Source of the DNA: a virus | IMG/VR virus record: IMGVR_UViG_3300032316_001265 | Location: 1 to 50,815 of that record | DNA length: 50,815 nucleotides | Direction: 5' to 3' (one strand) | Shown here: piece after piece, positions 3,606 through 44,696 of the stretch | Layout of the letters: the number at the start of each line of letters is the position of its first letter | Numbering within the stretch: position 1 is the stretch's first letter | Translations under genes and position numbers: made by a program | Notes under the pieces: model-generated | Seen by the model: the letters and a program-made list of their open reading frames with translations, nothing else | Databases searched by the model: none | Told to the model about the DNA's origin: nothing

Positions 3606-3632
3606 ATGCCAGACATGCCAGACATGCCAGAC
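3606..3632 (+). repeat. Triplicated 9-nt unit ATGCCAGAC at the helicase start
   Basis: Three perfect copies of ATGCCAGAC encode Met-Pro-Asp three times. Each copy supplies an in-frame start codon, so changes in copy number would move the start without breaking the gene. No strong ribosome-binding site singles out one ATG. Confidence 0.85.
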
Positions 3633-6248: not shown

Positions 6249-7499
6249 ATGAATAACAAAGCAAAAGTGTTCGTGCAGCTGGCCTCGTATCGCGATCCGC
6301 AGCTGCCCATTACCATCGCAGACATGCTTGAAAAAGCCGACAATCCCAGTCTGCTGAACTTTGGCATCTGCTGGCAATACGACGAGACTGAAGATATCAC
6401 GCAGTATGACAATCTGCCCAACTTTCGCGTCTCCAAACATCCTTATGCAGAAAGCCAAGGACTGGGCTGGGCGCGGAACATCACGAACCAGCTCTATGCC
6501 GGCGAAGGCCTGACGCTGCAACTCGACAGCCATCATAGATTTTTAAAGGGCTGGGACACGATGATGTACGAGGATTACTACGCCGCCCGGGAACTCTGCG
6601 CCAAGCCCGTGCTCAGTACTTATCTCACGCCGTTCGAGCCGCAGCAGACAACGTATGAAAAAATTCCATGTTTAATGAGCCAGTACGAGTTTAGCTCTGA
6701 CAAGCTGCTCATGAGCCGGCCGTATCACATCATGGATTATCTAACGCGCACAAAGCCTATTCGCGCACGCACAATCAGCGGGCACTTTTTATTAGCCGCG
6801 GGGAAATTCATCGAGGAAGTTCCCTACGATCCAGATATTTACTTTGGCGGCTACACCGAAGAGACCACGATGAGCGTGCGGGCGTTCACTCACGGTTGGG
6901 ATTTCTACAGTCCGTACCGGCAATACATCTGGCACGAGTACACGCGCAACGGCCGGCCAAAGCACTGGGAAGATCACGGCCGGGAATCGCAGACGAAGCA
7001 AACCAGCGGCGAGCGTGATATTTACGCCAGAAATAAGACACGGCAGATATTTGGTCAGGAAGCGCACGGTATTGAGATGGGCAAATACGGCTTGGGCACT
7101 GTCAGAACGCTGCGCGACTACGAGCTATTTGGTGGCTTTGATTTCAAAAAATGCCGGCTGCAGGACTACACGTTACAAGTCAAAGAGCCGCCGAATCCTG
7201 AGAATTGGGAAGAGCAGTTTGTTTCCCGCAAACACGATGTACTGTGCAACTGGGATCTTGAGTTCTTTAAAAAGCTAAAGTTCCAGAAACCCAAATTTTT
7301 AACGCTTGGCGTCCAGACTGAAGGCGGCGCTGAGCTCTACCGCAAAGACTTCACGCTAGAGCAGGACTCGGAGCACGTAAATCTTCTTATAAACTCGCAT
7401 CACGCGGCATTTTATACAGAGTTGCAGCCGGCTAAAATTGTGATGTACCTGTTTGACGAAGAAAAAGAGTGGAGCCCCGTCTACGAGAAAAAACTTTAA
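6249..7499 (+). CDS. Glycosyltransferase of the GlcNAc-transferase (PF11397-like) type
   Basis: 416 residues. The N-terminus (VFVQLASYRDPQLPITI) and the segment LQLDSHHRFLKGWD with D93-S-H95 match the pattern of the GlcNAc-transferase family known from protist cytoplasmic glycosylation, where an Asp-x-His/Asp binds the metal and nucleotide sugar. It is predicted to move a sugar, probably GlcNAc, from UDP to an acceptor; the acceptor is unknown. It leads a run of four sugar-related genes and its stop overlaps the next start. These genes probably decorate phage or host surface polymers. Confidence 0.82.
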   Translation: MNNKAKVFVQLASYRDPQLPITIADMLEKADNPSLLNFGICWQYDETEDITQYDNLPNFRVSKHPYAESQGLGWARNITNQLYAGEGLTLQLDSHHRFLKGWDTMMYEDYYAARELCAKPVLSTYLTPFEPQQTTYEKIPCLMSQYEFSSDKLLMSRPYHIMDYLTRTKPIRARTISGHFLLAAGKFIEEVPYDPDIYFGGYTEETTMSVRAFTHGWDFYSPYRQYIWHEYTRNGRPKHWEDHGRESQTKQTSGERDIYARNKTRQIFGQEAHGIEMGKYGLGTVRTLRDYELFGGFDFKKCRLQDYTLQVKEPPNPENWEEQFVSRKHDVLCNWDLEFFKKLKFQKPKFLTLGVQTEGGAELYRKDFTLEQDSEHVNLLINSHHAAFYTELQPAKIVMYLFDEEKEWSPVYEKKL

Positions 7500-12695: not shown

Positions 12696-15219
12696 GCGTA
12701 AGTTTCAAAAGCAGGCCAATCCATTTGGCAGCATGAATTTGTTTTCAGGCGATAGTGTGGCCGGCGGCGCCAAGCCGGCTGCAATTAAATCCGCGCCGGT
12801 TACTGCGCCGCCAGTGCCGGGCCCAAAGCCCGCCTTACAGCCGCAGGGTTTGGGTAACGCACTTCAGCAGGCGCAGACGCAGGCAAATCAGCTGTCATTT
12901 AAAGACTGGCACAAGAATCCAGGAAATCTCCCACCGCCGACATTTAACGCCGCAAATTATCCTAAAGATACGTTAACGCAACGCGCCTTCGGCGGCCTGA
13001 CCGGTTATCCAACGACGGAGGCGCAGCAGCACCAACAGGCGGTCAACAAACATTACGGAGATTTGCTCAGTACTGTGAGTTCGCAAAATCCGTCATGGCT
13101 TGGCCGCATGATGGGTTATGAAAACAATGCGCATCCGCAAGATGTAGAAGAAGCGAGCAAATTTATTCACTCTGTCGCCCCGGACACGGGGATCGTCAAA
13201 GGTACGCCCGGCGGTATTTTTGGCGGATTTACGCAACCGGGCGCCGGTATGGCCGCCGCGCAGTTTGCGCGTTCGCCGGCTGGGCTGAATATTGCACAAC
13301 AAATTGCGCAGACTGGCAGTCGTGTCGTGAACACGCCAAGCGGCGCCACGGCGATTCTTGGCGGAGCCGCTGCCGCGCCGGCTGTCGCGGCGGTTACCGC
13401 TGGTTTGCCGCAAGCTGCTGCGCCGGCTGCACAGGCCGGCTCGGCTGTCGGCCAGTTGGCGCGCGCTGCTGTACCAGTAGCCGGTGTTGTCGGGGGCTCG
13501 GCGGCCCTAAATGCAGCAGGCGTTACAGGCGAAAATATTGCAGATAGCGCCCTGCCCGCTGCTCAGCAACCGGTCGCGACTCAAGCCCCGCCCCAAGCCG
13601 CGCCACAAGACGGAACTCAGGCCGCACAAGCACAGGCGCAACAGCCAGCCGAAAGCAAGCCGATATTTGATCCGCAGCGGTCACCGTCTGCGCAAATTGC
13701 CAAAAACGACCAGGCAGCGAGCCAGCCCGCACCGGCGTTTGATGCCGAGGCCGCGTCAAAGCAGTATCAGGCGGCCAAAACACCTGAAGAACGTAACGCC
13801 GCGATTCAAGGAATGGCCAAGCAGCTGCAGACCGGGCTTTCGGGTGCCGACGCGACTGGCGCGCAGCACGTAATGGCCGGCGATTTTAATACGCCTGAAG
13901 CCAAAACGTTTATTGACAACAAACTTGGGCCAGCGGGCGACGAATTTTTGAAACAAATGACGGCCGGCAATCCTCAAGATCCAAATTTGTGGGGGCAAGC
14001 CGCAGGAATGTGGGAGTCGCTAGGAACAGCCGGGCAGATTGCTTTTTCAATTGGCGTGCCCATGGCATTATTGGGCATGATTGGCGGCAGCGGTATTACA
14101 ACGCTACTCGGCGCTCTGGGCATTGGCGCGGCTGGTTTGATGGGCGCGTCTGGCGGCTTATTTGGCCAAGACGCGCAGAATTCTGTTAACAGCGCTATCG
14201 GCGGCCTTGGCAAATCTTTAGCGCCTATGCTGGGCATTAATTTGCCGAATGAAACTGATATCAAAACTCGGTTAACTGCAGCGGCGGAGCAAAGCCCCGA
14301 ACAAGCGCAGGCGGAGCTGGCAAAAGTGCGGGCAGAAGTAGAACCATACGCCCGCTTTAGTCCCGAGGCGCAAAAATTTTTAACCGACTCGGCCGACCCG
14401 AACTACATGTACAACCAAGCAAAAAACTACGCAACCGAAAATTTTGCGCAGTTAGCCGACGAACGGATGGCAAATCCGGAAGGCCGGACTTGGACGCAAT
14501 ACGCGGGAAAGCTTTTAGGACTTAAAGGCGAAGATGCAAACAAACCAGGAACATGGAGTTCATATCTTATGGGCGCACCTGACACAGCTACACGCGCGCA
14601 AAACGTTGAAGAATCGTTAGCACAAAAAGGTTGGAAACGTGCCGCGCTGCAAGTCATGCATAAAGCCGCGCGGTGCTGGGCTGGCTATGAACCAGTGCCG
14701 GGCAAGAAGCCGTATAGCAACGACTCGTGCCGGCCGATTGGCGGCAAAAAGAAAAAGAAGAAGACAGAGAAAAAAGCTGTAGACGGTTACACTGGCGCAT
14801 ACAGCAACCGGCCGTTTGATGTTGAGCACGCCGCAAAGATGTTTAAAATGCCGGCAAAAAATCCGCAGCTTGTTTACAACCGGATGATGAACACTTGGAA
14901 ACAAAATAAATTTTCTCCAGCGCAGTTTTCCGAAATGCGCCAAAAATACGACGGCCTGCCGCCCGCGTTTAACACAACCGGGCAGCCTCCCGTGGCGGCG
15001 CAGCCTGCTCCAACACCGCCGCAGCAGGCTGTTAAGCCCGCGGCGCCCACAGCTTCTCCGTCGGCTACGCCTGTGGCGCCGCCGTCTCTCGCAACAGCGC
15101 CAAAACCTGCGCCGCAAAATCGGCCCACTATGACGCAGATGCCTCCGCAAACCGGCCCAATGCCGCCATCATCCGGCGCAACTGCATACATAAAGAGTGT
15201 GCGGGGTGGGCGTCGTTAA
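12661..15219 (+). CDS. Large Ala/Pro/Gln-rich protein with glycine-zipper core
   Basis: 852 residues from ATG 12661, which overlaps the cupin gene by 35 nt; an upstream ATG at 12586 would overlap it far more. The start reads MTKKTIATQILERKFQKQAN. Ala/Pro/Gln-rich low-complexity blocks lie around residues 230-345 and 780-840. A long hydrophobic glycine zipper is at about residues 460-500 (GQIAFSIGVPMALLGMIGG, then AGLMGASGGLFG). A Lys-rich stretch (about 695-708) precedes the C-terminal part. No enzyme motif. Size and composition suit an internal or tail-channel virion protein, which is inference only. Confidence 0.78.
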   Translation: MTKKTIATQILERKFQKQANPFGSMNLFSGDSVAGGAKPAAIKSAPVTAPPVPGPKPALQPQGLGNALQQAQTQANQLSFKDWHKNPGNLPPPTFNAANYPKDTLTQRAFGGLTGYPTTEAQQHQQAVNKHYGDLLSTVSSQNPSWLGRMMGYENNAHPQDVEEASKFIHSVAPDTGIVKGTPGGIFGGFTQPGAGMAAAQFARSPAGLNIAQQIAQTGSRVVNTPSGATAILGGAAAAPAVAAVTAGLPQAAAPAAQAGSAVGQLARAAVPVAGVVGGSAALNAAGVTGENIADSALPAAQQPVATQAPPQAAPQDGTQAAQAQAQQPAESKPIFDPQRSPSAQIAKNDQAASQPAPAFDAEAASKQYQAAKTPEERNAAIQGMAKQLQTGLSGADATGAQHVMAGDFNTPEAKTFIDNKLGPAGDEFLKQMTAGNPQDPNLWGQAAGMWESLGTAGQIAFSIGVPMALLGMIGGSGITTLLGALGIGAAGLMGASGGLFGQDAQNSVNSAIGGLGKSLAPMLGINLPNETDIKTRLTAAAEQSPEQAQAELAKVRAEVEPYARFSPEAQKFLTDSADPNYMYNQAKNYATENFAQLADERMANPEGRTWTQYAGKLLGLKGEDANKPGTWSSYLMGAPDTATRAQNVEESLAQKGWKRAALQVMHKAARCWAGYEPVPGKKPYSNDSCRPIGGKKKKKKTEKKAVDGYTGAYSNRPFDVEHAAKMFKMPAKNPQLVYNRMMNTWKQNKFSPAQFSEMRQKYDGLPPAFNTTGQPPVAAQPAPTPPQQAVKPAAPTASPSATPVAPPSLATAPKPAPQNRPTMTQMPPQTGPMPPSSGATAYIKSVRGGRR

Positions 15220-16040: not shown

Positions 16041-16478
16041 ATGTTAAAACCGTTGTCTGAAATGGTCGCGCTGTTAAATAACGACCTAAAAAACGAGTGG
16101 AAGCACCTAAAGTTCTATTTGTATCACGCCAGCGCCATTACTGGGTTTCACGCGCACGAGTACAAAGAGTTCTTACTCGAGCAGGCCGCCAGCGAACTAA
16201 ACCACGTCAGCCAGTTCTGCGATTTGATTATTGGCTTGGGCGGTATTCCCACGAACGACAGCAATTATTTTCCGCTGCTGACGCATCCGCAACACATTAT
16301 TGACTACGCCTGCAAGATGGAGGCGGAAGTCGTAGAAAACTACACGCACCGCATTGCGTCGTTGGCCGGGTTTACGCCGAGCGCCGACACTAAATGGATC
16401 GAGATTTTTCTGGAAAAACAAATTGAAGACAGCCGTACAGATTTAGACCATCTGCGGCAGATTTTAAAAGGAGCCTAA
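16041..16478 (+). CDS. Ferritin-like (bacterioferritin-type) diiron protein
   Basis: 145 residues, four-helix pattern. Likely metal ligands are E19, E52 with H55 (SELNH), E99 and the E129 to H137 stretch (EKQIEDSRTDLDHL), which strongly recalls the last helix of bacterioferritins and ferritin-like oxidoreductases. It may store or oxidise iron, or protect DNA from oxidative damage. Ferritin-like proteins are not common in phages. AGAGG precedes the start by 5 nt. A structured non-coding region follows directly. Confidence 0.82.
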   Translation: MLKPLSEMVALLNNDLKNEWKHLKFYLYHASAITGFHAHEYKEFLLEQAASELNHVSQFCDLIIGLGGIPTNDSNYFPLLTHPQHIIDYACKMEAEVVENYTHRIASLAGFTPSADTKWIEIFLEKQIEDSRTDLDHLRQILKGA

Positions 16479-23807: not shown

Positions 23808-24809
23808 ATGCCCAAAGGCTTAGACGTCGGTACTTCGTTTATCGTGCTGGCAGAAGACACCGCGGACGGAAATGTCGTATACAAAGACTTTCGCGACGCG
23901 TTTTACGCCATCAAGCCGACTACGCCCGTCGCGACCAAAATGATCGAGAAGGGCCTGGCCGATAAGGTATTCGTAAAAGACGAGGACAATACGTTTATTC
24001 TGCTTGGCCAGGACGCCATTGAAAAAGCAGTTGAGCGTAATGATTCGGCAAAGCGACCGATGTACCGCGGCGTCGTATCGCCCAAAGAAAAAGACGCCAA
24101 ACGTATTCTGGCGTACATTCTTAAAGAAGTAGTCGGCAAAGGGCTGCCCGGCGAAAAAATTGTATTTTGCGTGCCTGCCCAGCCGGTTGACCAGCCCGAC
24201 GACGACTTTGACGTCGGTTATCACGAGGACGTTGTGAAGGCGATTTTAGCTGAGCGTAACTACGACGCTCGCGCAATTCACGAGGCCGAGGCGCTGTGCT
24301 ATTCAGAATTTGAAAACGACGACTACACCGGTATTGGCTTGTCATTTGGTGCCGGCATGGTAAACGTCTGCATCATGCTCAATGGCGAGCCGACGGTGCA
24401 ATTTTCCACGACGCGCTCTGGCGACTGGGTTGACCGGATGTCGGCGGTGGCAACATCCGAGCCAGACTCGGTAGTTCAAGCCGAAAAGGAACACGGCAAA
24501 TTTGTCATTGGCGAACCCAACGACAATCCCATTCTGGCCGCTGTGGCCGCGTATTACGATCGCCTGATTGACTACACCACAAAACAGCTCACTGCGGCGC
24601 TTACAGGCCACAAAGCGCTACCCAAGTTTAAAAACCCAATTCCAGTTGCAATCGCCGGCGGGACATCCAAGGCCGCTGGTTTCGTAGATATGTTCGCCAA
24701 AAAATTGCAAGAAAATGAATTCCCGCTCGTTGTCAAAGAAGTAAGGCACGCCAATGATCCGCTTCACGCAGTTGCGCGCGGATGTTTAATTGCCGCTAAG
24801 ATTCTTTAA
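23808..24809 (+). CDS. Actin-like ATPase (ParM/MreB superfamily)
   Basis: 333 residues. Phosphate loop 1 is GLDVGTSFIVLA (4-15), loop 2 is LSFGAGMVNV (about 178-188), and the adenosine motif is IAGGTSKAAGF (about 281-291): the actin/Hsp70 fold. The length fits plasmid ParM-type or phage actin-like proteins that form filaments for DNA segregation or positioning. A strong AGGAG 7 nt upstream and no neighbouring DNA-binding adaptor of the ParR type are noted. Filament formation is inferred from the family. Confidence 0.87.
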   Translation: MPKGLDVGTSFIVLAEDTADGNVVYKDFRDAFYAIKPTTPVATKMIEKGLADKVFVKDEDNTFILLGQDAIEKAVERNDSAKRPMYRGVVSPKEKDAKRILAYILKEVVGKGLPGEKIVFCVPAQPVDQPDDDFDVGYHEDVVKAILAERNYDARAIHEAEALCYSEFENDDYTGIGLSFGAGMVNVCIMLNGEPTVQFSTTRSGDWVDRMSAVATSEPDSVVQAEKEHGKFVIGEPNDNPILAAVAAYYDRLIDYTTKQLTAALTGHKALPKFKNPIPVAIAGGTSKAAGFVDMFAKKLQENEFPLVVKEVRHANDPLHAVARGCLIAAKIL

Positions 24810-25590: not shown

Positions 25591-25596
25591 CTTTAT

Positions 25597-25668
25597 TGCT
25601 TGATAGCTCAACGGTAGAGCAGCCGGCTGTTAACCGGCAGGTTCTAGGTTCGAATCCTAGTCAAGCAG
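25597..25668 (+). tRNA. trnN: tRNA-Asn (anticodon GTT)
   Basis: A 72-nt cloverleaf: acceptor arms TGCTTGA (25597-25603) and TCAAGCA (25661-25667) with discriminator G25668, D-arm region AGCTCAACGGTAGAGC, anticodon stem GCCGG/CCGGC with loop CTGTTAA (anticodon GTT), and T-arm AGGTTCGAATCCT. No CCA is encoded. It lies 6 nt behind the small membrane gene. Confidence 0.97.
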
Positions 25669-25682
25669 TTTGAGGGTTGCCC

Positions 25683-27116
25683 ATGGATGGTCTAACTGCT
25701 TTACACGCTTTCTCGCCTGTATTTAACGCAAAACTTTATACGCAGGGCAACGCGTTCGGCTGGCTGGCAAAAGGCGGAAAAACAGCCAGCGCCGAATATC
25801 AGCTATCTGGCCGGCTGTACGCCGCCAAAAGCGGCTGGCTGCTGCTTTCCGTACCAAACGCGCTTGTGCGCGGCGTATTTGACGCCATCACCGCTCCCGG
25901 CGTCGAACTTCCGCTGGCTGGCGCAATGAACGTCCCGAATGTGGACAAAGACCTGCTTAACGCCCATATCTCGGTCATGACAGCCGCCGAAGTTGAAAAG
26001 ATCGGCGCCGACAATATTACAGAGCGCGGGCAGTCGTTTTCTTATACGCTCGGTAGTGTCAGAGAGGTTTCCGCCAAGAATATCGACGGCGTGAGCAAAC
26101 TTTGGCTGATCGAGGTGGCTAGTCCTGGTTTATCGGCGCTGCGCAAAAGCTATGGCCTGTCTGCGCTGCCTAAAGATCAGCCTTTTCACATTACTGTAGC
26201 TATTCGCCGCACCAAAGTGCTTGGCAACAATAGCGTCAGCAAAGGTTACGAAACCTATGCCGAACCGACGGACGGGCATAGCTTTCGTAACCCCCTGAGC
26301 AGGGGCGAGTTAAAAGCTGCCAGCTCTGACACAACCACATATGACTGCTGCTGCTCTGGCCCGTGCATGTGCCCAGATACATGCGTGTGCCGCAAACACG
26401 GTGCTTGCCACAGTGTTAAAGCCGCAAGCCGTATACCCGTTCGGGAAATTTCTCAAACCGCGTTAGCCGAAGGAGCTAAACATGAGCACGAACACACAAG
26501 CAATGATCAAATCGCCCGCAAAGTTGCCAAAGATCATTTGCAAGAAGACGCCGCCGACTACAAAAAAATCGAAAAAATAGAGAAGGCCGCCGCGCCAGAA
26601 GTTCCATCAATTATTCTTAGGCTGCGCGAAGCTAAAGCGCATTCTGACAACAAGCGCTATGACCGAAAAAACGCAATTCTGCAGATGCTGATGTCGGAGC
26701 ACCCTGCGGATTGGTATGTCGACGACCCGCTGCCGAAACACATGGGCGTCACGCATGCGCCGACTAATTTCCGTTTTCACGCAGATCCAGCCATTATTCC
26801 CGTCGGGGTTAAGGTTCGCGCAAAAGCTGCCAAAACTAATCCGTACGCCGCCCAGTTAGCCGCAACACCCGTGCAAATTAATCGCAACGACGGCCTGTGG
26901 CAAAACTTTATGCATCATTTGCGCAAGGTTAAACAACGCGGTGATTGGCAATTACAAGCTGAGCAGAACTCGCAAGGACTGCTCGCCGAACTTAATCCTG
27001 CGTACAAGCAGCAGCTGCAGACGGCGTTAGCGCGCGGACAATATCCGCAGCATAGTACAACGACACAGGTTATCCAGCGCCACGGCGATAACATACTCAG
27101 CTATTTAGGCAAATAA
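25683..27116 (+). CDS. 2H phosphoesterase-like protein with Cys-rich and DUF5661-like parts
   Basis: 477 residues from ATG 25683 (TTG 25677 possible). Two H-x-[ST]-x motifs, HISV (H95) and HITV (H169), 74 residues apart, define the 2H/LigT superfamily, which hydrolyses cyclic or 2'-5' phosphodiesters. Next comes a Cys-rich stretch (about 222-242, with CCC, CMC and CVC), perhaps a metal site. Residues about 260-300 (SNDQIARKVAKDHLQED) resemble DUF5661, and the region around WYVDDPLPKHMGVTH is a phage-type domain of unknown role. The 2H domain could act on RNA or on cyclic nucleotide signals of host defence. Confidence 0.75.
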   Translation: MDGLTALHAFSPVFNAKLYTQGNAFGWLAKGGKTASAEYQLSGRLYAAKSGWLLLSVPNALVRGVFDAITAPGVELPLAGAMNVPNVDKDLLNAHISVMTAAEVEKIGADNITERGQSFSYTLGSVREVSAKNIDGVSKLWLIEVASPGLSALRKSYGLSALPKDQPFHITVAIRRTKVLGNNSVSKGYETYAEPTDGHSFRNPLSRGELKAASSDTTTYDCCCSGPCMCPDTCVCRKHGACHSVKAASRIPVREISQTALAEGAKHEHEHTSNDQIARKVAKDHLQEDAADYKKIEKIEKAAAPEVPSIILRLREAKAHSDNKRYDRKNAILQMLMSEHPADWYVDDPLPKHMGVTHAPTNFRFHADPAIIPVGVKVRAKAAKTNPYAAQLAATPVQINRNDGLWQNFMHHLRKVKQRGDWQLQAEQNSQGLLAELNPAYKQQLQTALARGQYPQHSTTTQVIQRHGDNILSYLGK

Positions 27117-34916: not shown

Positions 34917-37900
34917 ATGCCACTTCCCGAGCCATCCAACTCGATTCTTGGCCCGCCACCGCGCTCTTTTGGTGATATCCCGGCGCTACGGGAAAACATC
35001 TTTCAGCAGTCGCAGCAGTCGGCGGTAAACGTTGCGCCATTTGACCCCAAGGTCACGCGCAAGGGTATTTTTGATACCGTGGCTAACCAAGCTGCAGGTA
35101 TTAAACCCATTCAGAACGATTTATACACGCTAAGCATTGCCGACGTTGGCTACGAGGGGCCCGAAGCGTATACAAAGAAGCAGCACAAAGAAGCTGTGCT
35201 TTCGCATGGCTCGCTCGCCCGAAAGCTCCGCGGCACCTGGAATCTGACTGACAATAAGACAGGCGCCGTTATCGCACAAAAGCGCGCAACGCTGGCTAAC
35301 GTGCCGTATATGACCGATTCCGGTACGTTTGTGCATAACGGCGTCGAGTACACGCTCGCGCACCAGATGCGGCTGCGGCCAGGCGTATATACCCGCGAAA
35401 AAGACAACGGCGAACTCGAGGCGCATGTAAACGTGCTGCCGGGTAAAGGCCGCATGCACCGCTACTTCCTCGACCCCAAAACGGGCGTATTCAAGATTAA
35501 TATCGGCCAGGCGCAGATTCCGTTGATGCCGCTTTTAAAGGCGGTCGGTGTGCCGGAGCAAGAAATTCGCAAAGCCTGGGGAAATGAGCTCACCGCTGTA
35601 AACATGGAAAAGGGCGACGCCGGCACGCTCGACAAGCTTTACAGCCGGCTCGTATACAAAGCCACGCCAGGGATCGACGCAGCCGGCAAACAAAAAGCTA
35701 TTGCTGACGAATTCTCACGCATGGAGCTGGATCCAGAGGTAACAAAGCGCACGCTAGGCGAGCCGGTCACGAATCTTACGCCGGATGTCGTGCTCAAGAT
35801 AACCAAAAAGCTAATTGCGTTAAATCGCAAAGAGGCCGACCCCGACGACCGCGACAGCATGGCTTTTCAGCACGTGCTCGGCCCAGAGGACTTGATTGGC
35901 GAGCGCTTCACGAAAGACCGCGCAATGGTGCGGCAGCTTTTATGGAAAGCTACGGCTAAAAAGAGCTTAGATCACGTACCCACCGGCGCGTTTAACAAAG
36001 CTATTACCGCTGCGTTAATTGGCTCCGGCCTGGGCAGTGCGCTTGAAGAAATCAATCCAGCAGAAATTTATGACCACCAAACGCGAGTAACCAGACTTGG
36101 CGAGGGCGGTATCGGCTCTTTAGACGCCGTGCCGCAAGAATCGCGCAGCGTTCAGCCCAGCCACTTCGGCTTTGTGGATTATCTGCGGTCGCCTGAAAGC
36201 GCAAAAGTCGGCGTTGACATGCGGTTTTCTGCTGGCGCTATGAAGGGCTCCGACGGCAAGATCTACACGCGCGTCAAGAATCTCAAGACAGGGCAGCTGG
36301 AATTAAAGTCGCCGCAAGACATCGCAGACACGCCACTCGTGTTTCCTGGCGAAGAGCAGAGCGATCTGCCAACTGTAGCGGCGATTGTAAACGGCAAGCT
36401 GAAATACATCTCCCGCGAAGACGCCCAATACGCGCTGCCGAACATGGATGCGTCTTTTTCTACGCTTTCTAACATGGTACCGCTCAAGTCCATGATGAAA
36501 GGCCACCGCGTGATCATGGGTAGCCGCATGTTTACCCAGGCGCTCCCGCTAGCCAACGCTGAGTCACCGCTGGTTCAGTCCGCCACAGCCGACGACCCAA
36601 ACAAGTCATACGAAGACGAAATGGGCAAAAAGCTCGGCGCCGTACACGCAGATGAGCTTTCGCAGGTTGTTTCAGTCAGCCCAGACGAAATCGTGCTGCG
36701 CAATAAAGACGGCGTTAAAAAAACGATTGAGCTCTATAACGATATGCCGTTTAATCGCAAGACAGCCTGGACGCAAAAACCGGCTGTTCAACCCGGCGAC
36801 ACTGTAAAACCAGGCCAGTTATTAGCCAGCTCAAATTTTACAGATCCAAAAGGCACTGCTGCGCTTGGCTTAAATCTGCGCGTCGGTTATTTGCCGTTTC
36901 GGGGCGCTGTCTACGACGACTCAGTGGCTATTTCAGAGTCTGCCGCTAAACGCCTCACCTCTGAGCACATGTATCAGCACGAGGTTGAGGCTGACGATAA
37001 CACGCATATCGATAAAAAGAAGTTTGTCAGTCTGTTTCCTGGCGAGTACGACAAAAAGCTACTCGACAAATTTGACAGTAATGGTGTAATTCGCAAGGGC
37101 TCTGTGGTGAACTATGGCGAGCCACTTATGCTCGTCAGCAAAGCCCGCGAGACAACTTACGGCCAAGTCTTCCGCGGCCGGGCTGCTAATTTTACGAATG
37201 ACTCTGTTACCTGGGACCATCATGCTCCGGGAATTGTGACAGACGTAACAAAGACCAAAAAGGGTTGGAGCGCGGTTGTTAAAGCCCAGTCTCAGATGGA
37301 AGTAGGCGATAAGCTCTCCGGCAGATTTGGCGATAAGGGCGTCGTGGCTGCTGTTATTGCTGACGACCAAATGCCAACAGACGCGCAAGGCCGCCCGCTC
37401 GAGGTGCTTGTCAGCCCGCTCGGTCTTGCTAGCCGTATTAACCCGTCTCAGATCGTAGAAGCCGCCCTCGGTAAAGTTGCAGAAAAGACAGGGCAACCGT
37501 ACAAGATCCAAGATTTCGACAGCTCTAGGGATTTAATTGAGTTCGCCAAGGCTGAATTACGTAAAAACGGGATGCAAGATTTAGACGACGTCACAGATCC
37601 CGAAACTGGGCGCAAGATCAAAGGCGTGCTGACCGGTAATCGCTTTTTCATGAAATTGCACCATACAGCTGAATCTAAAGCCCAGGGCCGCGCGACAGGT
37701 GGCTATACAGCCGAAGGTACACCGGCAAAAGGCGGAGCAGAGGGCGCAAAACGTGTCGGCATGCTCGATCTCGGCGCGTTGTTATCTCACGGCGCCGGCC
37801 AGGTTATCCGCGACGCCAAGATGGTACGCGGGCAGGCTAATCCCGAATACTGGTCGCAGGTGATGGCTGGGTATACTCCGCCGCTGCCAAAGATTCCGCA

Positions 37901-39365
37901 GGTATATACAAAATTTGTTGAGCAACTGCGCGGGGCTGGCATTAACACAGTCAGAACCGGCACTAAAACGCATATCATGGCCCTGACTGACAAAGACGTC
38001 GATCAACTCGCCGGCGACCGTGAAATAGAGAACGCCGAAACAGTCGACTGGAAAACTGGGCTAAAGCCTAAAAAGGGCGGGCTGTTTGACGAGTCATTAA
38101 CGGGCGGACATAACGGAAACCGCTGGTCAAAGATCACGCTGCACGAGCCAATGCCGAATCCCGTCATGGAAGATCCGATCCGGCGAGTGCTCGGCTTAAC
38201 CGAAAAAAAGTTCAGAGATGTGCTCGCCGGACGTGAGCAATTGGGCGACAAAACAGGGCCTGTTGCTATAAAAGACGCGCTAGCGCGCGTGAATGTGCCC
38301 AAGGCAATAGAGCAGGCCAGATTGGACATCCAATCAGGGCGAAAAACCGCAAGAGACGCCGCGGTGCGGCGTCTCGCTTTTCTTAAGACAGCAGAAAAGA
38401 CAGGCGCGCATCCAGAATCTTGGATGCTGACAAAAATGCCGGTAATTCCGCCAGCATTCCGGCCAGTCTCGACCATGGGGCAAAAAAAGCTGCCGCTCGT
38501 GGCTGACGCTAATTATCTGTACAAAGAGCTGCTCGACGCGAACGGGGCGTTAAAAGAATCGACGGGAGTTCTGGACGATACTGGCGACGAGCGTCTCGGG
38601 TTGTACGACGCAATGAAGGGCGTTACGGGTTTAGGCGACCCGCAGCAGGCAAAGAACGTCGAGCGGCGCGTGCGGGGCTTTTTATCGCAAATATTCGGGT
38701 CGTCGCCAAAGTACGGCACGGTGCAGCGCAAATTATTAAGCAGCACGGTGGATTTAGTCGGGCGCGCAGTAATCACGCCAAACGCTGACTTAGACATGGA
38801 TCACGTAGCGCTGCCGGAAGAAAAAGCCTGGGAGATTTACAAGCCATTTATTGTGCGCGGCTTAGTGCGCCGGGGCTTGCCGCGCATGGAAGCTGTCAAA
38901 GCGTTTGACGGAAAAAACAACGCGGCACGCGACGAACTAAATGCGCAAATGAATTCGCGGCCAATTATTATTAACCGCGCGCCAGTGCTGCACCGTTACG
39001 GCATGATGGCGTTTTATCCGCGGCTGACCAAGAACAAGACGATGGAAGTCAGCCCGCTTGTGACTAAGGGTTTCGGCGCGGACTTTGACGGCGACGCCAT
39101 GCAATTTCACGTACCCAGCACGGACAGCGCGGCCAAAGAAGCTGCGGAAAAAATGCTGCCCAGCAAAAACTTATTTGCTGCGGCCACTTTTAAAGCGCAT
39201 TACACGCCAACAGCTGAGCTGCAGGCTGGGCTGTATGTTGCGTCTAATCGCACAAATAAAAAAACGCAGCCGCGTGTGTTCCGGTCGTCTAAAGACGCGA
39301 TTGCTGCATATAGACGGGGTGAAATAGAGGTCGACACGCCGGTGCATATTGTAGAGAATAGTTAA
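34917..39365 (+). CDS. rpoBC: RNA polymerase beta subunit fused to N-terminal half of beta-prime
   Basis: 1482 residues. Residues about 60-1030 follow bacterial beta from start to end: MTDSGTFVHNGVE and LRPGVYTRE (beta lobe), the region around GLNLRVGYLPF, the double lysine GDKLSGRFGDKGVV (K799 and K807, equal to E. coli beta K1065 and K1073), and a beta C-terminus with GMLDLGALLSHGA. From about 1035 it continues as beta-prime: LKPKKGGLFD, LTKMPVIPPAFRP, VGRAVITPN, INRAPVLHRYG and DFDGD (D1389, D1391, D1393) that binds catalytic magnesium. The beta-prime N-terminal zinc-finger Cys are absent. It ends before the bridge helix, which is in 40317-42194. Divergent from bacterial enzymes throughout. 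Confidence 0.93.
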   Translation: MPLPEPSNSILGPPPRSFGDIPALRENIFQQSQQSAVNVAPFDPKVTRKGIFDTVANQAAGIKPIQNDLYTLSIADVGYEGPEAYTKKQHKEAVLSHGSLARKLRGTWNLTDNKTGAVIAQKRATLANVPYMTDSGTFVHNGVEYTLAHQMRLRPGVYTREKDNGELEAHVNVLPGKGRMHRYFLDPKTGVFKINIGQAQIPLMPLLKAVGVPEQEIRKAWGNELTAVNMEKGDAGTLDKLYSRLVYKATPGIDAAGKQKAIADEFSRMELDPEVTKRTLGEPVTNLTPDVVLKITKKLIALNRKEADPDDRDSMAFQHVLGPEDLIGERFTKDRAMVRQLLWKATAKKSLDHVPTGAFNKAITAALIGSGLGSALEEINPAEIYDHQTRVTRLGEGGIGSLDAVPQESRSVQPSHFGFVDYLRSPESAKVGVDMRFSAGAMKGSDGKIYTRVKNLKTGQLELKSPQDIADTPLVFPGEEQSDLPTVAAIVNGKLKYISREDAQYALPNMDASFSTLSNMVPLKSMMKGHRVIMGSRMFTQALPLANAESPLVQSATADDPNKSYEDEMGKKLGAVHADELSQVVSVSPDEIVLRNKDGVKKTIELYNDMPFNRKTAWTQKPAVQPGDTVKPGQLLASSNFTDPKGTAALGLNLRVGYLPFRGAVYDDSVAISESAAKRLTSEHMYQHEVEADDNTHIDKKKFVSLFPGEYDKKLLDKFDSNGVIRKGSVVNYGEPLMLVSKARETTYGQVFRGRAANFTNDSVTWDHHAPGIVTDVTKTKKGWSAVVKAQSQMEVGDKLSGRFGDKGVVAAVIADDQMPTDAQGRPLEVLVSPLGLASRINPSQIVEAALGKVAEKTGQPYKIQDFDSSRDLIEFAKAELRKNGMQDLDDVTDPETGRKIKGVLTGNRFFMKLHHTAESKAQGRATGGYTAEGTPAKGGAEGAKRVGMLDLGALLSHGAGQVIRDAKMVRGQANPEYWSQVMAGYTPPLPKIPQVYTKFVEQLRGAGINTVRTGTKTHIMALTDKDVDQLAGDREIENAETVDWKTGLKPKKGGLFDESLTGGHNGNRWSKITLHEPMPNPVMEDPIRRVLGLTEKKFRDVLAGREQLGDKTGPVAIKDALARVNVPKAIEQARLDIQSGRKTARDAAVRRLAFLKTAEKTGAHPESWMLTKMPVIPPAFRPVSTMGQKKLPLVADANYLYKELLDANGALKESTGVLDDTGDERLGLYDAMKGVTGLGDPQQAKNVERRVRGFLSQIFGSSPKYGTVQRKLLSSTVDLVGRAVITPNADLDMDHVALPEEKAWEIYKPFIVRGLVRRGLPRMEAVKAFDGKNNAARDELNAQMNSRPIIINRAPVLHRYGMMAFYPRLTKNKTMEVSPLVTKGFGADFDGDAMQFHVPSTDSAAKEAAEKMLPSKNLFAAATFKAHYTPTAELQAGLYVASNRTNKKTQPRVFRSSKDAIAAYRRGEIEVDTPVHIVENS

Positions 39366-39387
39366 GTTACGACTTAAGGAGTTTTTT

Positions 39388-40083
39388 ATGTCTATTGTGA
39401 ACGCTGAGCTTTTACGTCTTGCCCGCGCGCGTCTTGTAAAAGAATCTGTGGCTATGCCCGGCGCTGACCCCGCCGCCGCGCCGGTTGATCCCGCCGCTGG
39501 CGTAGACCCGGCGGCAATGGCCGCGCAGCCTGCCGCGCCAATGGACATGGGCATGGGCGCAGCTCCCGCTCCCGCTCCCGCGCCGGCACCGGCTCCAGCA
39601 CCCGCCGCACCGCAGCAACCAGCGCAGCAAAAATTAAAGCCAGAGCAGATGATGCAGATGATTGATTATCGGCTTTACAATATGCAGCAGCAGCTTACTG
39701 CGATTATGAACGCGTTGGGCGTACAGCTCCCGCCTGAAGCTATTGTGCTGCCGCCTGGTTCTACATCCGCACCGCCGGCTGAGTCTGCTTTGCCTGGCGG
39801 CGCTGGTGCGCCCACGCCGACGCCCGAACAGGGCGGAGCCGCGCCTGCCGGTTTGCCGCAAGATGTATATGCCGGCGCAGATCCGGTGCAAAACGGTGGC
39901 GCGGTTCCCCCGATCGCGCCCGCAAAGGCGGCGCAATGGTGGCAGCAAATGGAATCGCCCAAAGCGGCGTCTTACATTGGCGATCCTGTAACGCGATCAG
40001 ACGAAGAGCAGCCGATCAATTTACAACTGGCGGCTGACGCCGCGTCGGCGCTGTACAGGAGCCTCATGCGCAATGCGCGTTAA
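39388..40083 (+). CDS. Ala/Pro-rich low-complexity protein between the RNA polymerase genes
   Basis: 231 residues with AAGGAG 7 nt upstream. A basic helical start (NAELLRLARARLVKES) is followed by Pro-Ala repeats (residues about 58-75), a helix (QMMQMIDYRLYNMQQQLTA, about 86-104), more Pro/Gly/Ala and a helical end with tandem Trp. No family recognised. Its place between the two halves of the polymerase suggests either a virion protein or a polymerase-associated factor; the sequence does not decide. Confidence 0.7.
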   Translation: MSIVNAELLRLARARLVKESVAMPGADPAAAPVDPAAGVDPAAMAAQPAAPMDMGMGAAPAPAPAPAPAPAPAAPQQPAQQKLKPEQMMQMIDYRLYNMQQQLTAIMNALGVQLPPEAIVLPPGSTSAPPAESALPGGAGAPTPTPEQGGAAPAGLPQDVYAGADPVQNGGAVPPIAPAKAAQWWQQMESPKAASYIGDPVTRSDEEQPINLQLAADAASALYRSLMRNAR

Positions 40084-40315
40084 GTCGCAGTACTATTTGC
40101 AGCCTACGGTATCTGACGCACATAGCGTTATTGTTGAAGATTCGCGCGGTAACATTTTGTTTGTGGCGGTCGAAGCCGGCGGCAACAGCATTATTGCGGC
40201 CCAAGCTGGCGACAAAGACTTCAACGATATTTTAAAGGCGCTGGGCATAGACAAGGTCACGTACGTGACCGAGTTTAAACCAAAGTCTATCGAAGAAATG
40301 AAAAACCTGTTGTGA
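40073..40315 (+). CDS. Small conserved-looking 80-residue protein
   Basis: Overlaps the Ala/Pro-rich gene by 11 nt and ends 1 nt before the polymerase C-terminal gene. Compact alpha/beta protein: SDAHSVIVEDSRGNILFVAVE, GGNSIIAAQAGD and FNDILKALGIDKV. No family named. Its constant coupling with the polymerase halves makes a small accessory subunit worth testing. Confidence 0.68.
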   Translation: MRVKSQYYLQPTVSDAHSVIVEDSRGNILFVAVEAGGNSIIAAQAGDKDFNDILKALGIDKVTYVTEFKPKSIEEMKNLL

Positions 40316-40316
40316 C

Positions 40317-42194
40317 ATGCTAAAAACAACGCTCGGTCAAGTTCTGATTAATAGCGCGCTCCCGCCGGATCTGCGGGACTACAGTCGCGTTTTAAACAAA
40401 AAGAACATGATTGCGCTGGCGACTGAGCTTGCCAAAAAATATCCAGATAACTATCGCGATGTCATGAAAGAGCTTCAAGACATCGGCTCAGACGCGGCTT
40501 ACACAACGAACGGATTATCTGTCGGGCTAGACGCAATTAGACCTGCAGTATCGGCGCTTAAAAAACAGCAGGAAGTAAAGCAACGTTTGCGCTCTATTTT
40601 GGCCAACCGCGGGCTTGACGATAAAACGCGCAATTTAAAGATTCTCGAGCTGACCAGCGGCGCGCAAAAAGAAATCATCGACGCCGTCGCGGCCGAGGCC
40701 GAAGAGCAAGACAATCCGCTGTTTCATCAAGTCAGCGGCGGCATCAAAGGAAATAAGTTTCAGCTAAATAGTCTGCTCGGCGCGGACATGCAATACGTAG
40801 ATCACAAAAACGATCCGATTCCGATTCCAGTATTACGTAGCTACAGCCAGGGGCTGCGCCCAGTAGAGTATTTTGCTGGCGCGTTCGGCACGCGCAAAGG
40901 TTTGATCGATCTTAAAACAGCGACGTCTGACGCCGGGTTTTTTGCGAAGCAACTTGCGCAGATGAATCACAGGCTGCTCGTCACCGCGGACGATGACGAC
41001 GACGAACAAGCCGCAACCAACGATACACGCGGCCTACCCACTGATGTCGACGATCCGGATAACGAAGGCGCGCTTTTAGCGCGCGGTGCCGGGCCGTATA
41101 AAAGAAATACGGTGCTTACGCCAAAGATTCTCAAAGATTTAAAGACGCTCGGTGTAACAGACATACTCGTGCGCAGCCCGACTGTTGGCGGCCCCGCCGA
41201 TGGCGGCGTATTTGCACGTGACGTTGGGTATCGCGAAAAAATGCGGCTGCCGCCGATTGGTGATTATGTCGGAATCGCGGCGGCACAGGCGCTAGCTGAG
41301 CCTGTCACGCAGAGTCAGATTAGCTCCAAGCACAGCGGCGGCGTAGGCGGCGCGAGCGCTATTGCGGGCTTTGGTGCGTTAAACGCGCTGGTGCAGGTTC
41401 CAGAAAAATACCCAAACGGCGCTACGCACGCGCACATCGACGGGACTGTACAAGAAATTCGCGCGGCTCCGCAGGGTGGTAGTTACGTAGTTATAAATGG
41501 GCAAGAGCATTATGTGCCAACTGGCGTGCCGCTTAAAGTAAAAAAGGGGGACGCGCTGGAAGCCGGCGACGTAGTGTCAGACGGCATGCCCAGCCCCGGC
41601 GAAATTGTAAAGTACAAAGGCGTAGGCGAGGGCCGGCGGTATTTTATATCGGCAATGCGGCAAGTTCTTGGCAATACTGGGATAACTGGGCATCGGCGCA
41701 ACATTGAATTGCTTGCGCGCGGTTTGATTAATCACGTGCGCCTGACCGACGAGCACGGCGATTACGTCCCAGATGACGTTGTGCCGTACTCAATGCTCGA
41801 GCGGTCGTGGCAGCCTAGAACTGGAAGTGTCCGCGGCAATCCAAAAAGCTATATGGGGCATTATTTAGAGCGCCCGGTGCTGCACTATTCAATTGGCACA
41901 AAGATTGGAAAATCAGTCGTCAACAATCTAAATAAATACGGTATCAACGACATTGAAGTTCACAAAGAGCCGCCGCCGTTTGAACCAGAAATGATTCGCG
42001 GAATGGCCAGCGTCGCCACAGACCCGGACTGGATGACCCGAATGATGGGGTCATATCAGCAAAAAAGTTTATTAAATGCCACGCACCGCGCGGCCGAAAG
42101 CGACACGGCTGGCAGTAGTTTTGTGCCGACTTTAGCCCGCGGAGAGACGTTTGGCCTCGCCGGCGCCACGAGCGGCTGGAAGCCGCAGCCGTAA
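40317..42194 (+). CDS. rpoC: RNA polymerase beta-prime C-terminal half
   Basis: 625 residues that begin where the fused gene stops: TTLGQVLINSALP corresponds to the TTVGR segment of bacterial beta-prime, followed by GLSVGLDAIRP. The bridge-helix region is RSYSQGLRPVEYFAGAFGTRKG (from about residue 173). DYVGIAAAQALAEPVTQSQISSKHSGGV (from 316) is the trigger-loop base, with H339 aligned to E. coli beta-prime His936. The conserved GHRRNIELLARGL segment follows. Together with the fused gene this gives a complete catalytic core. A sequence of Asp residues (DDDDDE near 224-229) is a local insertion. Confidence 0.92.
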   Translation: MLKTTLGQVLINSALPPDLRDYSRVLNKKNMIALATELAKKYPDNYRDVMKELQDIGSDAAYTTNGLSVGLDAIRPAVSALKKQQEVKQRLRSILANRGLDDKTRNLKILELTSGAQKEIIDAVAAEAEEQDNPLFHQVSGGIKGNKFQLNSLLGADMQYVDHKNDPIPIPVLRSYSQGLRPVEYFAGAFGTRKGLIDLKTATSDAGFFAKQLAQMNHRLLVTADDDDDEQAATNDTRGLPTDVDDPDNEGALLARGAGPYKRNTVLTPKILKDLKTLGVTDILVRSPTVGGPADGGVFARDVGYREKMRLPPIGDYVGIAAAQALAEPVTQSQISSKHSGGVGGASAIAGFGALNALVQVPEKYPNGATHAHIDGTVQEIRAAPQGGSYVVINGQEHYVPTGVPLKVKKGDALEAGDVVSDGMPSPGEIVKYKGVGEGRRYFISAMRQVLGNTGITGHRRNIELLARGLINHVRLTDEHGDYVPDDVVPYSMLERSWQPRTGSVRGNPKSYMGHYLERPVLHYSIGTKIGKSVVNNLNKYGINDIEVHKEPPPFEPEMIRGMASVATDPDWMTRMMGSYQQKSLLNATHRAAESDTAGSSFVPTLARGETFGLAGATSGWKPQP

Positions 42195-42275
42195 AAGAGT
42201 GGATTAGAAAGCCAAATACGGGTAAATTATCAATACCGGTTTTAACAGCGCGTAACGTGCCGCATGGAGGTGGCT

Positions 42276-44696
42276 GTGTATAACAAGAAAAATAAGCAAC
42301 CCGCTTGGAAACAACACCTCGTCAAAATGGGGCAATACGCCCGTACAGGCGTCAAAACCGCGACACTGGGTGGAAAAGGCGACGACACGCCGTTTGAGCA
42401 GGCATTTAGCAATCTGGCCCACGCGTATCTGCAAGACAAAGCCCCAGGCCTGCTCGACCACGAAATCGGCTTTCAGTTGCTCGACCGCAACAACGAAAAC
42501 ACTAAAGCGGTCGGCGTATTTGCATTTAAAGTCGGCTCGCTCTGGCTATATGCGCCGATGTTCTTTTTAAACGGCGACCTCAAGGGCCACGAGCTGTTGT
42601 ACCTCAAAAACCAGGACATGTTTGTTCCGCTTAAGGAAAATTGGATTAACTACCTGGTAAACCGCAAGCCGAGCATTCTTGGGCAAAGCGTAGACCGTAA
42701 TTTAACACAACTTGGGCAGCGGCAGCCTGACTTTACGCAAATGAGCCGCTCGCCGTCTAAGTTTGGCTCCGCGCGGCCGTCGTTGAAAGAAATGGTCACG
42801 GCAGCTCTTCCCGCGTTTGCAAAAAGCGCGACTACGAACACAGCCAGCGCGTTTGAAGAGCTTGGCGCGACATTAAACCTGCCGGCGTTTTTGAAAGAAG
42901 CCGGGCTAGAGGTTGTTCAAAAACTTGTAGCAACTTGTCAGTATGCTCCGCAACTGGCCTCCGCCATCGAAGAGTTTCACGGCCTTGACGTCATTAAGGC
43001 CGCTGTAGAGGCGAACACGACGCGTGCGTTGCAGCCCAAAATCGCCAGTGTACTATCTGCCGCGCCGGAAAAACCCGCAGCCGCGGCAGGCCTTAAGGTC
43101 ATTACGCACGATACCACAGTGCAGACAAAACTGCCGGCTGGTTATTCGGAAGACGATCAAGAGAAATTACTACGCGACGGCGTGCTCATCCTCGATCAGC
43201 GCGACCGCGACAACGTATCTATTCCGTATCAAATTCAGGTTGAAAAAAAGCTGTTCAATCCGACTGAAAGCGGCTTGTACGACATTCTTGTAAAGCCGGG
43301 CGATATCGAGCGTTGCTATGTTGCCGTACATCCAATGGGCGCGGCAAAGCGGGCAGATTTTGTCACAGTCGTCCGAACAGACGGCACACCGGACTGGATT
43401 AACACCCGCGCGGATCATGTTTTTGCGTTAACCCGCATCGAGGGCGACGAGTTCGACAGCTGGTTTGAAAAGCTGCCGGAAGCGACCAAGCTCTCGGGCG
43501 GAATGACTCGGGCGATCCTGTTAAACAAAAAAGGCGATACGACCGTGCCGGTACGCGTTATCCGCGAATACGGCGACAGCGAATACGGCACCACCTCTTA
43601 CGAAGTACACCTCGAAGATCACAGCAAGTATCCGCCGAGAGGTTCGATTGGCGCGTGCTGCTATACCGATCCGCTGAACTACGATAAATGGCGCGACGGC
43701 GTGCGTGTGCATCTTGGCGCCAGCAAGGGCTCTAAGCTGCGGTCCAGCATGGGTGATATTTTCGTGCCGAAAGGGTTTAAGATGCTCAAGTGCGCCCCAG
43801 GCGAAGACGACGTCGCCGACGTTGAAGAAGCCGGGCAAGGTTCGTGCGGTTGCGGAGAAAGCAAAGATCCGCCGCTCATGCCTGGTAATCTTGTAGATGC
43901 GCAACTAGCGCTTATGAGCAAAACAGCGGCTCTGCGTATTTATCACAACGGCACCGAGTTTTCGATTAATCCAGAGCTCAATAAAGAAGCACGTGTGGGT
44001 CACATCAAGGCGCTTGTTACGCTTGTAGAGCATCACGGCCTGCGCGAAGACGCGGCCCGCGAAATTCTTAAGCAGGCCGCTGCTAAACGTAAGTTTGAAT
44101 GCCGCGTAAAATACGCCGCGCCGTACGGCGCCCCGATGATGATCAACGACGCGCCCACTGCGCCGACTATGCCGCCGCCGGTAATGGGCGGGGAGTATGT
44201 GCTAAACACCGATGTACCGACACAACTTGGCATCGACCAGGGCGTACCGGTTCCAGGCATGAGCGCGATGCGCACAGACCGCCAGGTTTACAACCCGAAT
44301 CCAAAATACGACAAAGGTGTGTTGGCCAGCGGCGACGACAGCGAAATTCAGCGCATTCTTGCGGCGGCGGGCTCTGGCCAAAAAGAAGTATTTGACACGG
44401 CCATGATTGGTAGCATGTTGCGGGCTGTCCGCGATGACTCCCTTGTAGACCGGTACATGGGCGAGTTGACTAAAGGCTTAGACAAGCTGGGGCGTATTCT
44501 GTTTATGTTTTACTGGCACGGCGACCGGTTTGCTGAACGCTACGGCAAATCAGATATGCCGGAGCTTGAGGATTCGTTGCGCAACGCCTTCGAAATGCTT
44601 GGCGACGTAATCCTGTTCTTGAAACAAAAGACTATCGAAGCGTATCCGACAGAAGACACAAGCGACGTCGATCTCGGCGCCGTAGCAAATTCATAA
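42276..44696 (+). CDS. Large unknown protein following the RNA polymerase genes
   Basis: 806 residues from GTG 42276, which has GGAGG 5 nt upstream; ATG 42264 adds four residues but lacks a ribosome-binding site. The N-terminal third is globular with FEQAFSNLAHAYLQDKAPGL and AFKVGSLWLYAPMFF. A middle region contains a Cys cluster (GSCGCGESKDPP, about residue 525). The C-terminus is helical, with Pro-Met stretches near 640. No family recognised. It is about the size of a major structural or large accessory protein and lies in the RNA polymerase block. Confidence 0.78.
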   Translation: MYNKKNKQPAWKQHLVKMGQYARTGVKTATLGGKGDDTPFEQAFSNLAHAYLQDKAPGLLDHEIGFQLLDRNNENTKAVGVFAFKVGSLWLYAPMFFLNGDLKGHELLYLKNQDMFVPLKENWINYLVNRKPSILGQSVDRNLTQLGQRQPDFTQMSRSPSKFGSARPSLKEMVTAALPAFAKSATTNTASAFEELGATLNLPAFLKEAGLEVVQKLVATCQYAPQLASAIEEFHGLDVIKAAVEANTTRALQPKIASVLSAAPEKPAAAAGLKVITHDTTVQTKLPAGYSEDDQEKLLRDGVLILDQRDRDNVSIPYQIQVEKKLFNPTESGLYDILVKPGDIERCYVAVHPMGAAKRADFVTVVRTDGTPDWINTRADHVFALTRIEGDEFDSWFEKLPEATKLSGGMTRAILLNKKGDTTVPVRVIREYGDSEYGTTSYEVHLEDHSKYPPRGSIGACCYTDPLNYDKWRDGVRVHLGASKGSKLRSSMGDIFVPKGFKMLKCAPGEDDVADVEEAGQGSCGCGESKDPPLMPGNLVDAQLALMSKTAALRIYHNGTEFSINPELNKEARVGHIKALVTLVEHHGLREDAAREILKQAAAKRKFECRVKYAAPYGAPMMINDAPTAPTMPPPVMGGEYVLNTDVPTQLGIDQGVPVPGMSAMRTDRQVYNPNPKYDKGVLASGDDSEIQRILAAAGSGQKEVFDTAMIGSMLRAVRDDSLVDRYMGELTKGLDKLGRILFMFYWHGDRFAERYGKSDMPELEDSLRNAFEMLGDVILFLKQKTIEAYPTEDTSDVDLGAVANS

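What the first reader, a model, noticed from the sequence alone, without database searches (positions are those of the whole stretch)
34917..42194. RNA polymerase with a beta to beta-prime fusion and a split beta-prime
One chain carries all of beta and the N-terminal half of beta-prime including DFDGD; the rest of beta-prime (bridge helix, trigger loop with H339) is a separate gene, with two small genes between. Beta-beta-prime fusions are known in some bacteria (Helicobacter and Wolbachia) and a split beta-prime in cyanobacteria and plastids and in phiKZ-like phages. Here the break lies just N-terminal of the TTVGR-like segment, close to but not identical with the cyanobacterial split. Fusion and split in one phage enzyme is unusual. 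Deeply branching beta/beta-prime enzymes have been reported from metagenomic tailed phages, and this may be a member.
Basis: partly seen in the sequence, partly recalled or inferred. Interest (0 to 1): 0.8.

Follow-up and report, generated by a model that had tools for sequence, protein, structure and literature searches.

The report
Two-chain phage RNA polymerase, oddly divided
This large bacterial virus carries its own bacteria-like RNA-copying enzyme, in which two normally separate subunits are joined and one of them is then cut in two; more than a hundred related viruses have the same layout, and sister viruses keep the whole enzyme core as one giant protein, so its history of fusion followed by splitting can be read directly.

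Summary
One 1,482-aa ORF (34917-39365) holds all of beta and beta-prime up to just past the catalytic DFDGD domain. A 625-aa ORF (40317-42194) holds the rest (bridge helix, trigger loop His339). Catalytic residues are intact, and only the short beta-prime zinc-binding domain is missing. It is not an assembly error: about 100 distinct IMG/VR sequences and four cultured phages (Salmonella phage Arash; Vibrio phages D69, D181, D148) share the fusion and the break at the same position, in D181 and D148 with an interruption (a group I intron in D181) inside beta.

A sister group (47 distinct sequences) encodes beta, beta-prime-N and beta-prime-C as one chain of about 2,050 aa. In the tree these are a basal grade, and all fused-plus-split enzymes form one clade (SH-aLRT 100). 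The order is therefore most likely fusion first, then one secondary split just before the TTVGR segment. No alpha gene was found in 25 large genomes; a sigma factor was found in 24. The published Arash virion proteome contains both chains and the homologous sigma. Best reading: an alpha-less, two-chain virion polymerase with its own sigma. Transcription activity, and packaging in the window's own phage, are inferred. New variant of a known kind (phage multisubunit RNAP, probably mReC).

The parts
34917..39365 (+). Fused RNAP chain, 1,482 aa: full beta followed by N-terminal beta-prime
34917..37952 (+). beta part (residues about 1-1012), with catalytic Lys799 and Lys807
   Evidence: alignment to Salmonella RpoB-RpoC; Foldseek match to bacterial beta
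37953..37970 (+). beta/beta-prime junction (residues about 1013-1018): beta C-terminus runs almost seamlessly into beta-prime N-terminus
37971..39362 (+). N-terminal beta-prime (residues about 1019-1482): N-terminal zinc domain missing, clamp-helix region and catalytic double-psi barrel retained
39081..39095 (+). Catalytic DFDGD (residues 1389-1393)
39388..40083 (+). 231-aa Pro/Ala-rich protein, poorly conserved, no family match
40073..40315 (+). 80-aa conserved orphan protein lying directly upstream of beta-prime-C in about 37 lineages; confident small beta-sheet fold, no known match
40317..42194 (+). C-terminal beta-prime, 625 aa: TTVGR-like start, bridge helix, trigger loop, through to the beta-prime C-terminus
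40869..40982 (+). Bridge-helix region
   Evidence: alignment read against bacterial beta-prime
41331..41333 (+). Trigger-loop His339 (E. coli His936 equivalent)
42264..44696 (+). 810-aa downstream protein; distant partial match to the Arash virion protein gp218, two genes after its beta-prime-C

Best explanation
This is a phage-encoded bacterial-type RNA polymerase core made of two polypeptides: (1) beta joined head-to-tail to N-terminal beta-prime, carrying both double-psi barrels and so both halves of the active centre (Lys799/Lys807 and DFDGD); (2) C-terminal beta-prime, carrying the bridge helix and trigger loop. The covalent link between beta and beta-prime, with the separate C-terminal piece docking onto it, would replace the alpha-based assembly platform, since no alpha is encoded. 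A phage sigma factor would direct it to phage promoters. By homology with Salmonella phage Arash, the core and sigma travel in the virion and would start early transcription on entry. Evolutionary order: beta and beta-prime fused in the phage ancestor into one chain of about 2,050 aa, still seen in sister phages; then a single break in the loop between the DPBB domain and the TTVGR segment gave the two-chain form. Shown: the gene layout, its conservation, conserved catalytic residues, the tree, co-occurring sigma, no alpha match. From the literature: both chains and sigma in Arash particles. Inferred: catalytic activity, alpha-independence, packaging in the window's own phage, and that mobile elements caused the break.
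For: Domains and motifs. Conservation of fusion plus split: about 100 distinct sequences and Arash, D69, D181, D148. Single-chain sisters: 53 loci, 47 distinct, 1,900-2,427 aa, confirmed independently by a family search placing Rpb1_5 in 2,056-2,188-aa frames versus 612-772-aa frames in split genomes and by Pfam. Tree: split forms one clade, single-chain forms a basal grade, under LG and C20-PMSF. Exact break between ...VxI and TTxGR. Sigma in 24 of 25 genomes; alpha in 0 of 25. Virion proteomics of Arash: gp206 3,516 spectra (the most of any protein), gp216 1,210, sigma gp10 467 (PMC10585845); the clade's sigma matches gp10 at 6e-13.
Against: No activity has been shown for any member. The window record is a 50.8-kb fragment, so its own sigma was not seen and a second RNAP outside the fragment cannot be excluded. 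The Arash authors themselves say the enzymes may be carry-over from the infected cell. The tree uses only five bacterial outgroup sequences and no archaea, and the single-chain groups join with weak supports (88-93), so 'single-chain first' rests on parsimony. Profile searches can miss a very divergent alpha. Proteolytic maturation of the fused chain was not tested.
Confidence: 0.75

Rival explanations
1. Split first: the ancestor had a split beta-prime, as in other phages, and the single-chain sisters re-fused it.
For: Yersinia phage YerA41, sister to the lineage in the tree, has beta-prime in two genes.
Against: The YerA41 break lies well C-terminal of TTVGR, so it is a different event. Single-chain forms are several basal branches, which would need repeated precise re-fusion. 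Bacteria and Rhizobium phage RHph_Y65 have intact beta-prime.
Confidence: 0.12
2. It is a non-virion polymerase made during infection and not packaged; its presence in Arash particles is contamination.
For: The Arash authors allow this (PMC10585845).
Against: gp206 is the most-detected protein in the particle, above the capsid protein. In Arash the portal gene lies next to beta and the sigma gene lies among virion genes. Some relatives extend beta-prime-C by long Pro/Ala-rich tails.
Confidence: 0.2
3. The break is an assembly or sequencing error, or a pseudogene.
For: None found.
Against: Same break in about 100 distinct sequences and in cultured phages; intervening DNA ranges from 0.6 to 7.4 kb, in Arash with genes on the other strand.
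Confidence: 0.01
4. The split was produced by a mobile element (intein or intron) that was later lost.
For: Relatives carry interruptions at many sites in beta and beta-prime; insertions with intein/homing-endonuclease domains include the one at DFDGD in L039. In L037 the gene is broken into two ORFs at DFDGD, the second with LAGLIDADG and intein-splicing domains. A group I intron with an HNH endonuclease interrupts beta in D181. The intron route was proposed for jumbo-phage RNAPs (PMC7598289).
Against: No intein remnant is seen at this break in any relative examined. This is a cause of, not an alternative to, the best explanation.
Confidence: 0.3

Closest known systems
RNAP of Salmonella phage Arash (gp206, gp216, sigma gp10) and Vibrio phages D69/D181/D148
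   Same: Same fusion, same split point, homologous sigma; about 32% identity in the fused chain
   Different: Arash keeps the second zinc cluster of beta-prime; the genes between differ and lie partly on the other strand; in the passages read, the Arash paper calls gp206 'beta' and gp216 'beta-prime' and does not report the fusion
mReC polymerases (Weinheimer and Aylward 2020, PMC7481178)
   Same: Tailed-phage, metagenomic, bacterial-like beta/beta-prime on a long separate branch; the single-chain relative L256 comes from metagenome 3300017989, which also gave two of their three named representatives
   Different: The main text describes beta and beta-prime subunits and mentions fusion only for crAssphage; the window has GADFDGD, not NADxDGD
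phiKZ-like jumbo phage vRNAP/nvRNAP
   Same: Phage multisubunit RNAP without alpha, beta-prime split after the DPBB
   Different: Theirs: two enzyme sets, beta split too, no fusion, no sigma, split coinciding with the cyanobacterial site (PMC7598289, PMC7824862)
Cyanobacterial and plastid RpoC1/RpoC2
   Same: beta-prime divided after the catalytic domain
   Different: Their break maps roughly 20-50 residues further C-terminal, after the TTVGR segment (position inferred from PDB 8h3v alignments); beta not fused
Helicobacter and Wolbachia RpoB-RpoC fusions (own knowledge)
   Same: Head-to-tail beta-beta-prime fusion
   Different: Whole beta-prime is fused, alpha and omega are kept; the single-chain sister phages resemble these more closely

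Membership tests
mReC (Weinheimer and Aylward 2020) | Tailed-phage contig encoding both beta and beta-prime homologues | tested here: met
   relatives of 107-205 kb
mReC (Weinheimer and Aylward 2020) | RNAP clade separate from cellular enzymes | tested here: inconclusive
mReC (Weinheimer and Aylward 2020) | NADxDGD motif | tested here: not met
   Window GADFDGD; many relatives have NADFDGD
mReC (Weinheimer and Aylward 2020) | T4-type capsid PF07068 and common terminase family | not tested
   Capsid and terminase genes were not identified in the 50.8-kb window
phiKZ-like jumbo phage RNAPs | Two RNAP sets per genome | tested here: not met
   One beta-prime-N and one beta-prime-C in each of 13 relatives
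phiKZ-like jumbo phage RNAPs | No sigma factor | tested here: not met
   Sigma found in relatives; the window fragment itself lacks it
phiKZ-like jumbo phage RNAPs | beta split into two or more chains | tested here: not met
   beta is whole in one ORF
Cyanobacterial/plastid RpoC1-RpoC2 split | Break at the same position | tested here: not met
   Break is before TTVGR; the cyanobacterial one is inferred to be after it
Bacterial RpoB-RpoC fusions | Complete beta and complete beta-prime in one chain | tested here: not met
   Not met in the window; met in 53 sister loci
Virion RNA polymerase | Polymerase present in the phage particle | not testable with these tools
   Shown by proteomics for the homologue in Arash only
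crAss-like/YonO single-chain RNAPs | Minimal two-barrel chain too divergent for sequence matches to cellular subunits | tested here: not met
   Strong, near full-length matches to bacterial beta and beta-prime

The most novel reading that the evidence does not exclude
A whole lineage of large tailed phages descends from an ancestor whose RNAP core was one polypeptide of about 2,050 residues containing complete bacterial-type beta and beta-prime. It was alpha-independent and carried in the virion with its own sigma, and in one branch it was secondarily cut into two interlocking chains.
Probability: 0.55. Interest if true: 0.78.

Novelty: new variant of a known kind. Interest (0 to 1): 0.64.

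Why it matters
Cellular multisubunit polymerases need alpha to bring beta and beta-prime together. Here is a natural series (separate subunits in bacteria, one giant chain in sister phages, two re-divided chains here) that lets alpha-independent assembly and the evolution of split polymerases be tested with close relatives. Cultured members exist (Arash, Vibrio D69), so it is directly testable. It also suggests that the metagenomic phage RNAP lineage is a fused one, which would affect how its beta and beta-prime are treated in deep phylogenies.

Tried and rejected
Assembly break or frameshift: rejected by conservation. 'Unfused phage relatives' in GenBank (OR844998, OR846602, MT836236 and others): rejected; at least these three and CAKLQH020000005 are bacterial rpoB-rpoC operons next to ribosomal-protein genes, mislabelled as phage, and PHROG 24349/25354 may stem from such records (lengths fit; not tested). 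The 80-aa protein as omega or a missing beta-prime piece: no match by sequence or fold (best E 0.4), and the two chains already cover beta and beta-prime apart from the deleted first zinc domain. A genome-collection scan for cellular carriers gave only two phage contigs in metagenome bins. AlphaFold of residues 283-1482 (mean pLDDT 74.5, pTM 0.62) matches bacterial beta but is too loose to judge the junction geometry. No tool allowed prediction of the complex. Paper searches found no description of the fusion-plus-split; this covers open-access papers only and no supplements.

Full report
Observation. Pfam domains run Rpb2_2, Rpb2_3, Rpb2_6, Rpb1_1, Rpb1_2 in the first and Rpb1_5 in the second. 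Aligned with Salmonella RpoB-RpoC, beta ends near residue 1012 and beta-prime starts within a few residues of it, so the join is almost seamless. Catalytic residues are invariant in the phages compared: beta Lys799 and Lys807, beta-prime Arg1354, Asp1389, Asp1391, Asp1393, and trigger-loop Gln332 and His339. The N-terminal zinc domain of beta-prime is missing in the whole lineage; the second zinc cluster is kept in Arash, D69 and most single-chain forms but lost in the window's subclade. The best PDB matches by sequence and by fold are bacterial beta and beta-prime.

It is conserved. Arash (gp206, gp216) and Vibrio phages D69, D181 and D148 carry the same fusion and split. Scans of IMG/VR gave 199 loci (96 distinct) with fused beta-beta-prime-N and a separate beta-prime-C, plus 10 in which the contig ends first. 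The DNA between the two pieces ranges from 615 to 7,374 bases, and in Arash holds genes on the opposite strand, so readthrough or frameshifting is excluded as a general mechanism.

A single-chain sister group. With an Arash-led alignment, 53 loci (47 distinct) appeared in which beta, beta-prime-N and beta-prime-C are one open frame, mostly 2,007-2,173 aa. An independent family search put Rpb1_5 in 2,056-2,188-aa frames in seven such genomes and in 612-772-aa frames in the five split ones. A search of the 50,697 GenBank phage records surfaced no cultured single-chain member among the best hits.

Tree. Concatenated proteins give: bacteria; YerA41; a grade of single-chain enzymes; and one clade holding all 29 fused-plus-split enzymes with SH-aLRT 100. 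Without YerA41 and under a C20 mixture model the split forms are again one clade with full support and the single-chain forms are not. Parsimony gives fusion first, one split later. The supports joining the single-chain groups are only 88-93, so the root of that grade is not firm.

Where the break is. In single-chain relatives the sequence runs ...DVVTMKGKKTTPGRVLLASALP...; in the window it is ...VHIVENS-stop and then MLKTTLGQVLINSALP.... Almost nothing is lost. YerA41, which also has a split beta-prime, breaks well after this segment. The cyanobacterial break is inferred to lie about 20-50 residues further on (from: 8h3v beta-prime residue 34 aligns with beta-prime-C residue 51; the 625-aa gamma chain aligns to its residue 557 with window residue 1477).

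How it works (inferred where stated). One chain supplies both barrels of the active site, the other the bridge helix and trigger loop. No alpha was found in 25 large genomes of the lineage, while the same search finds it in 13 of 14 control genomes. A sigma factor with region 3 was found in 24 of 25, in 22 of them above the curated cut-off (domains). It is related to Arash gp10 (6e-13), which lies among virion genes. The Arash particle contains gp206 (3,516 spectra, the most of any protein), gp216 (1,210) and sigma gp10 (467) (PMC10585845). The simplest reading is a packaged holoenzyme that starts early transcription; for the window's phage this is by homology. The gene after beta-prime-C has a distant partial match to an Arash virion protein, gp218.

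The 80-aa protein. It sits directly upstream of beta-prime-C in about 37 lineages, has a confident small beta-sheet model (pLDDT 91), and matches nothing known. Its constant position suggests a partner of the polymerase; this is a guess.

Mobile elements. Relatives show in-frame insertions at a dozen or so sites in these genes. Those checked against Pfam show intein and LAGLIDADG domains in L039, including one exactly at DFDGD, and a gene broken at DFDGD in L037 whose second ORF carries LAGLIDADG and intein-splicing domains. Vibrio D181 has a group I intron in beta with an HNH endonuclease gene. This makes an element-driven origin of the split plausible, as proposed for jumbo-phage RNAPs (PMC7598289), but no remnant marks this break.

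Novelty. Phage multisubunit RNAPs, beta-beta-prime fusions and split beta-prime are each known. The combination, the single-chain sister group and the inferred order of events were not found described in the open-access papers searched. The mReC paper probably sampled this lineage, since L256 comes from a metagenome it used, but the parts of its text that were read and searched do not mention fusion or splitting of these subunits. Supplements and subscription papers were not searched.

Noticed in passing
L024, L026, L037, L039, L121, L125, L191, L195, L199 and others (beta/beta-prime ORFs): Large in-frame insertions at about a dozen sites in phage RNAP genes; L039 has several, with intein/LAGLIDADG domains, one exactly at DFDGD. 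L199 has one at the trigger loop (not domain-checked).
   Followed up: partly
L037:7905-13247 and 13386-15122: beta-prime gene broken at DFDGD; the second ORF has LAGLIDADG and intein C-terminal splicing domains: a possible split intein or a decayed one.
   Followed up: partly
L005:2634-2841 and 6431-6711 (Vibrio phage D181): Two group I introns; the second interrupts beta and is followed by an HNH homing endonuclease gene.
   Followed up: partly
L126, L131, L132, L134, L140, L146, L147, L190 (beta-prime-C ORFs): beta-prime-C carries C-terminal extensions of roughly 250-750 residues, mostly Pro/Ala-rich.
   Followed up: no
L065, L066, L067, L208, L209: Records in the phage collection that are bacterial chromosome pieces with ribosomal-protein and rpoB-rpoC genes.
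   Followed up: yes
window 23808-24809: Actin-like protein matching Pfam Volactin at 1.5e-65.
   Followed up: no
window 3606-6146: Snf2-type helicase, a type also linked to RNAP genes in phiKZ-like phages.
   Followed up: no
window 6249-7499; 16041-16478; 25596-25669; 25677-27116: GlcNAc glycosyltransferase; ferritin-like protein; tRNA-Asn; 2H-phosphoesterase-domain protein.
   Followed up: no
L213 (VBAH01000059.1) and L212 (CALDGA010000086.1): Phage contigs of this lineage binned into Alphaproteobacteria and Flavobacteriales metagenome bins.
   Followed up: no
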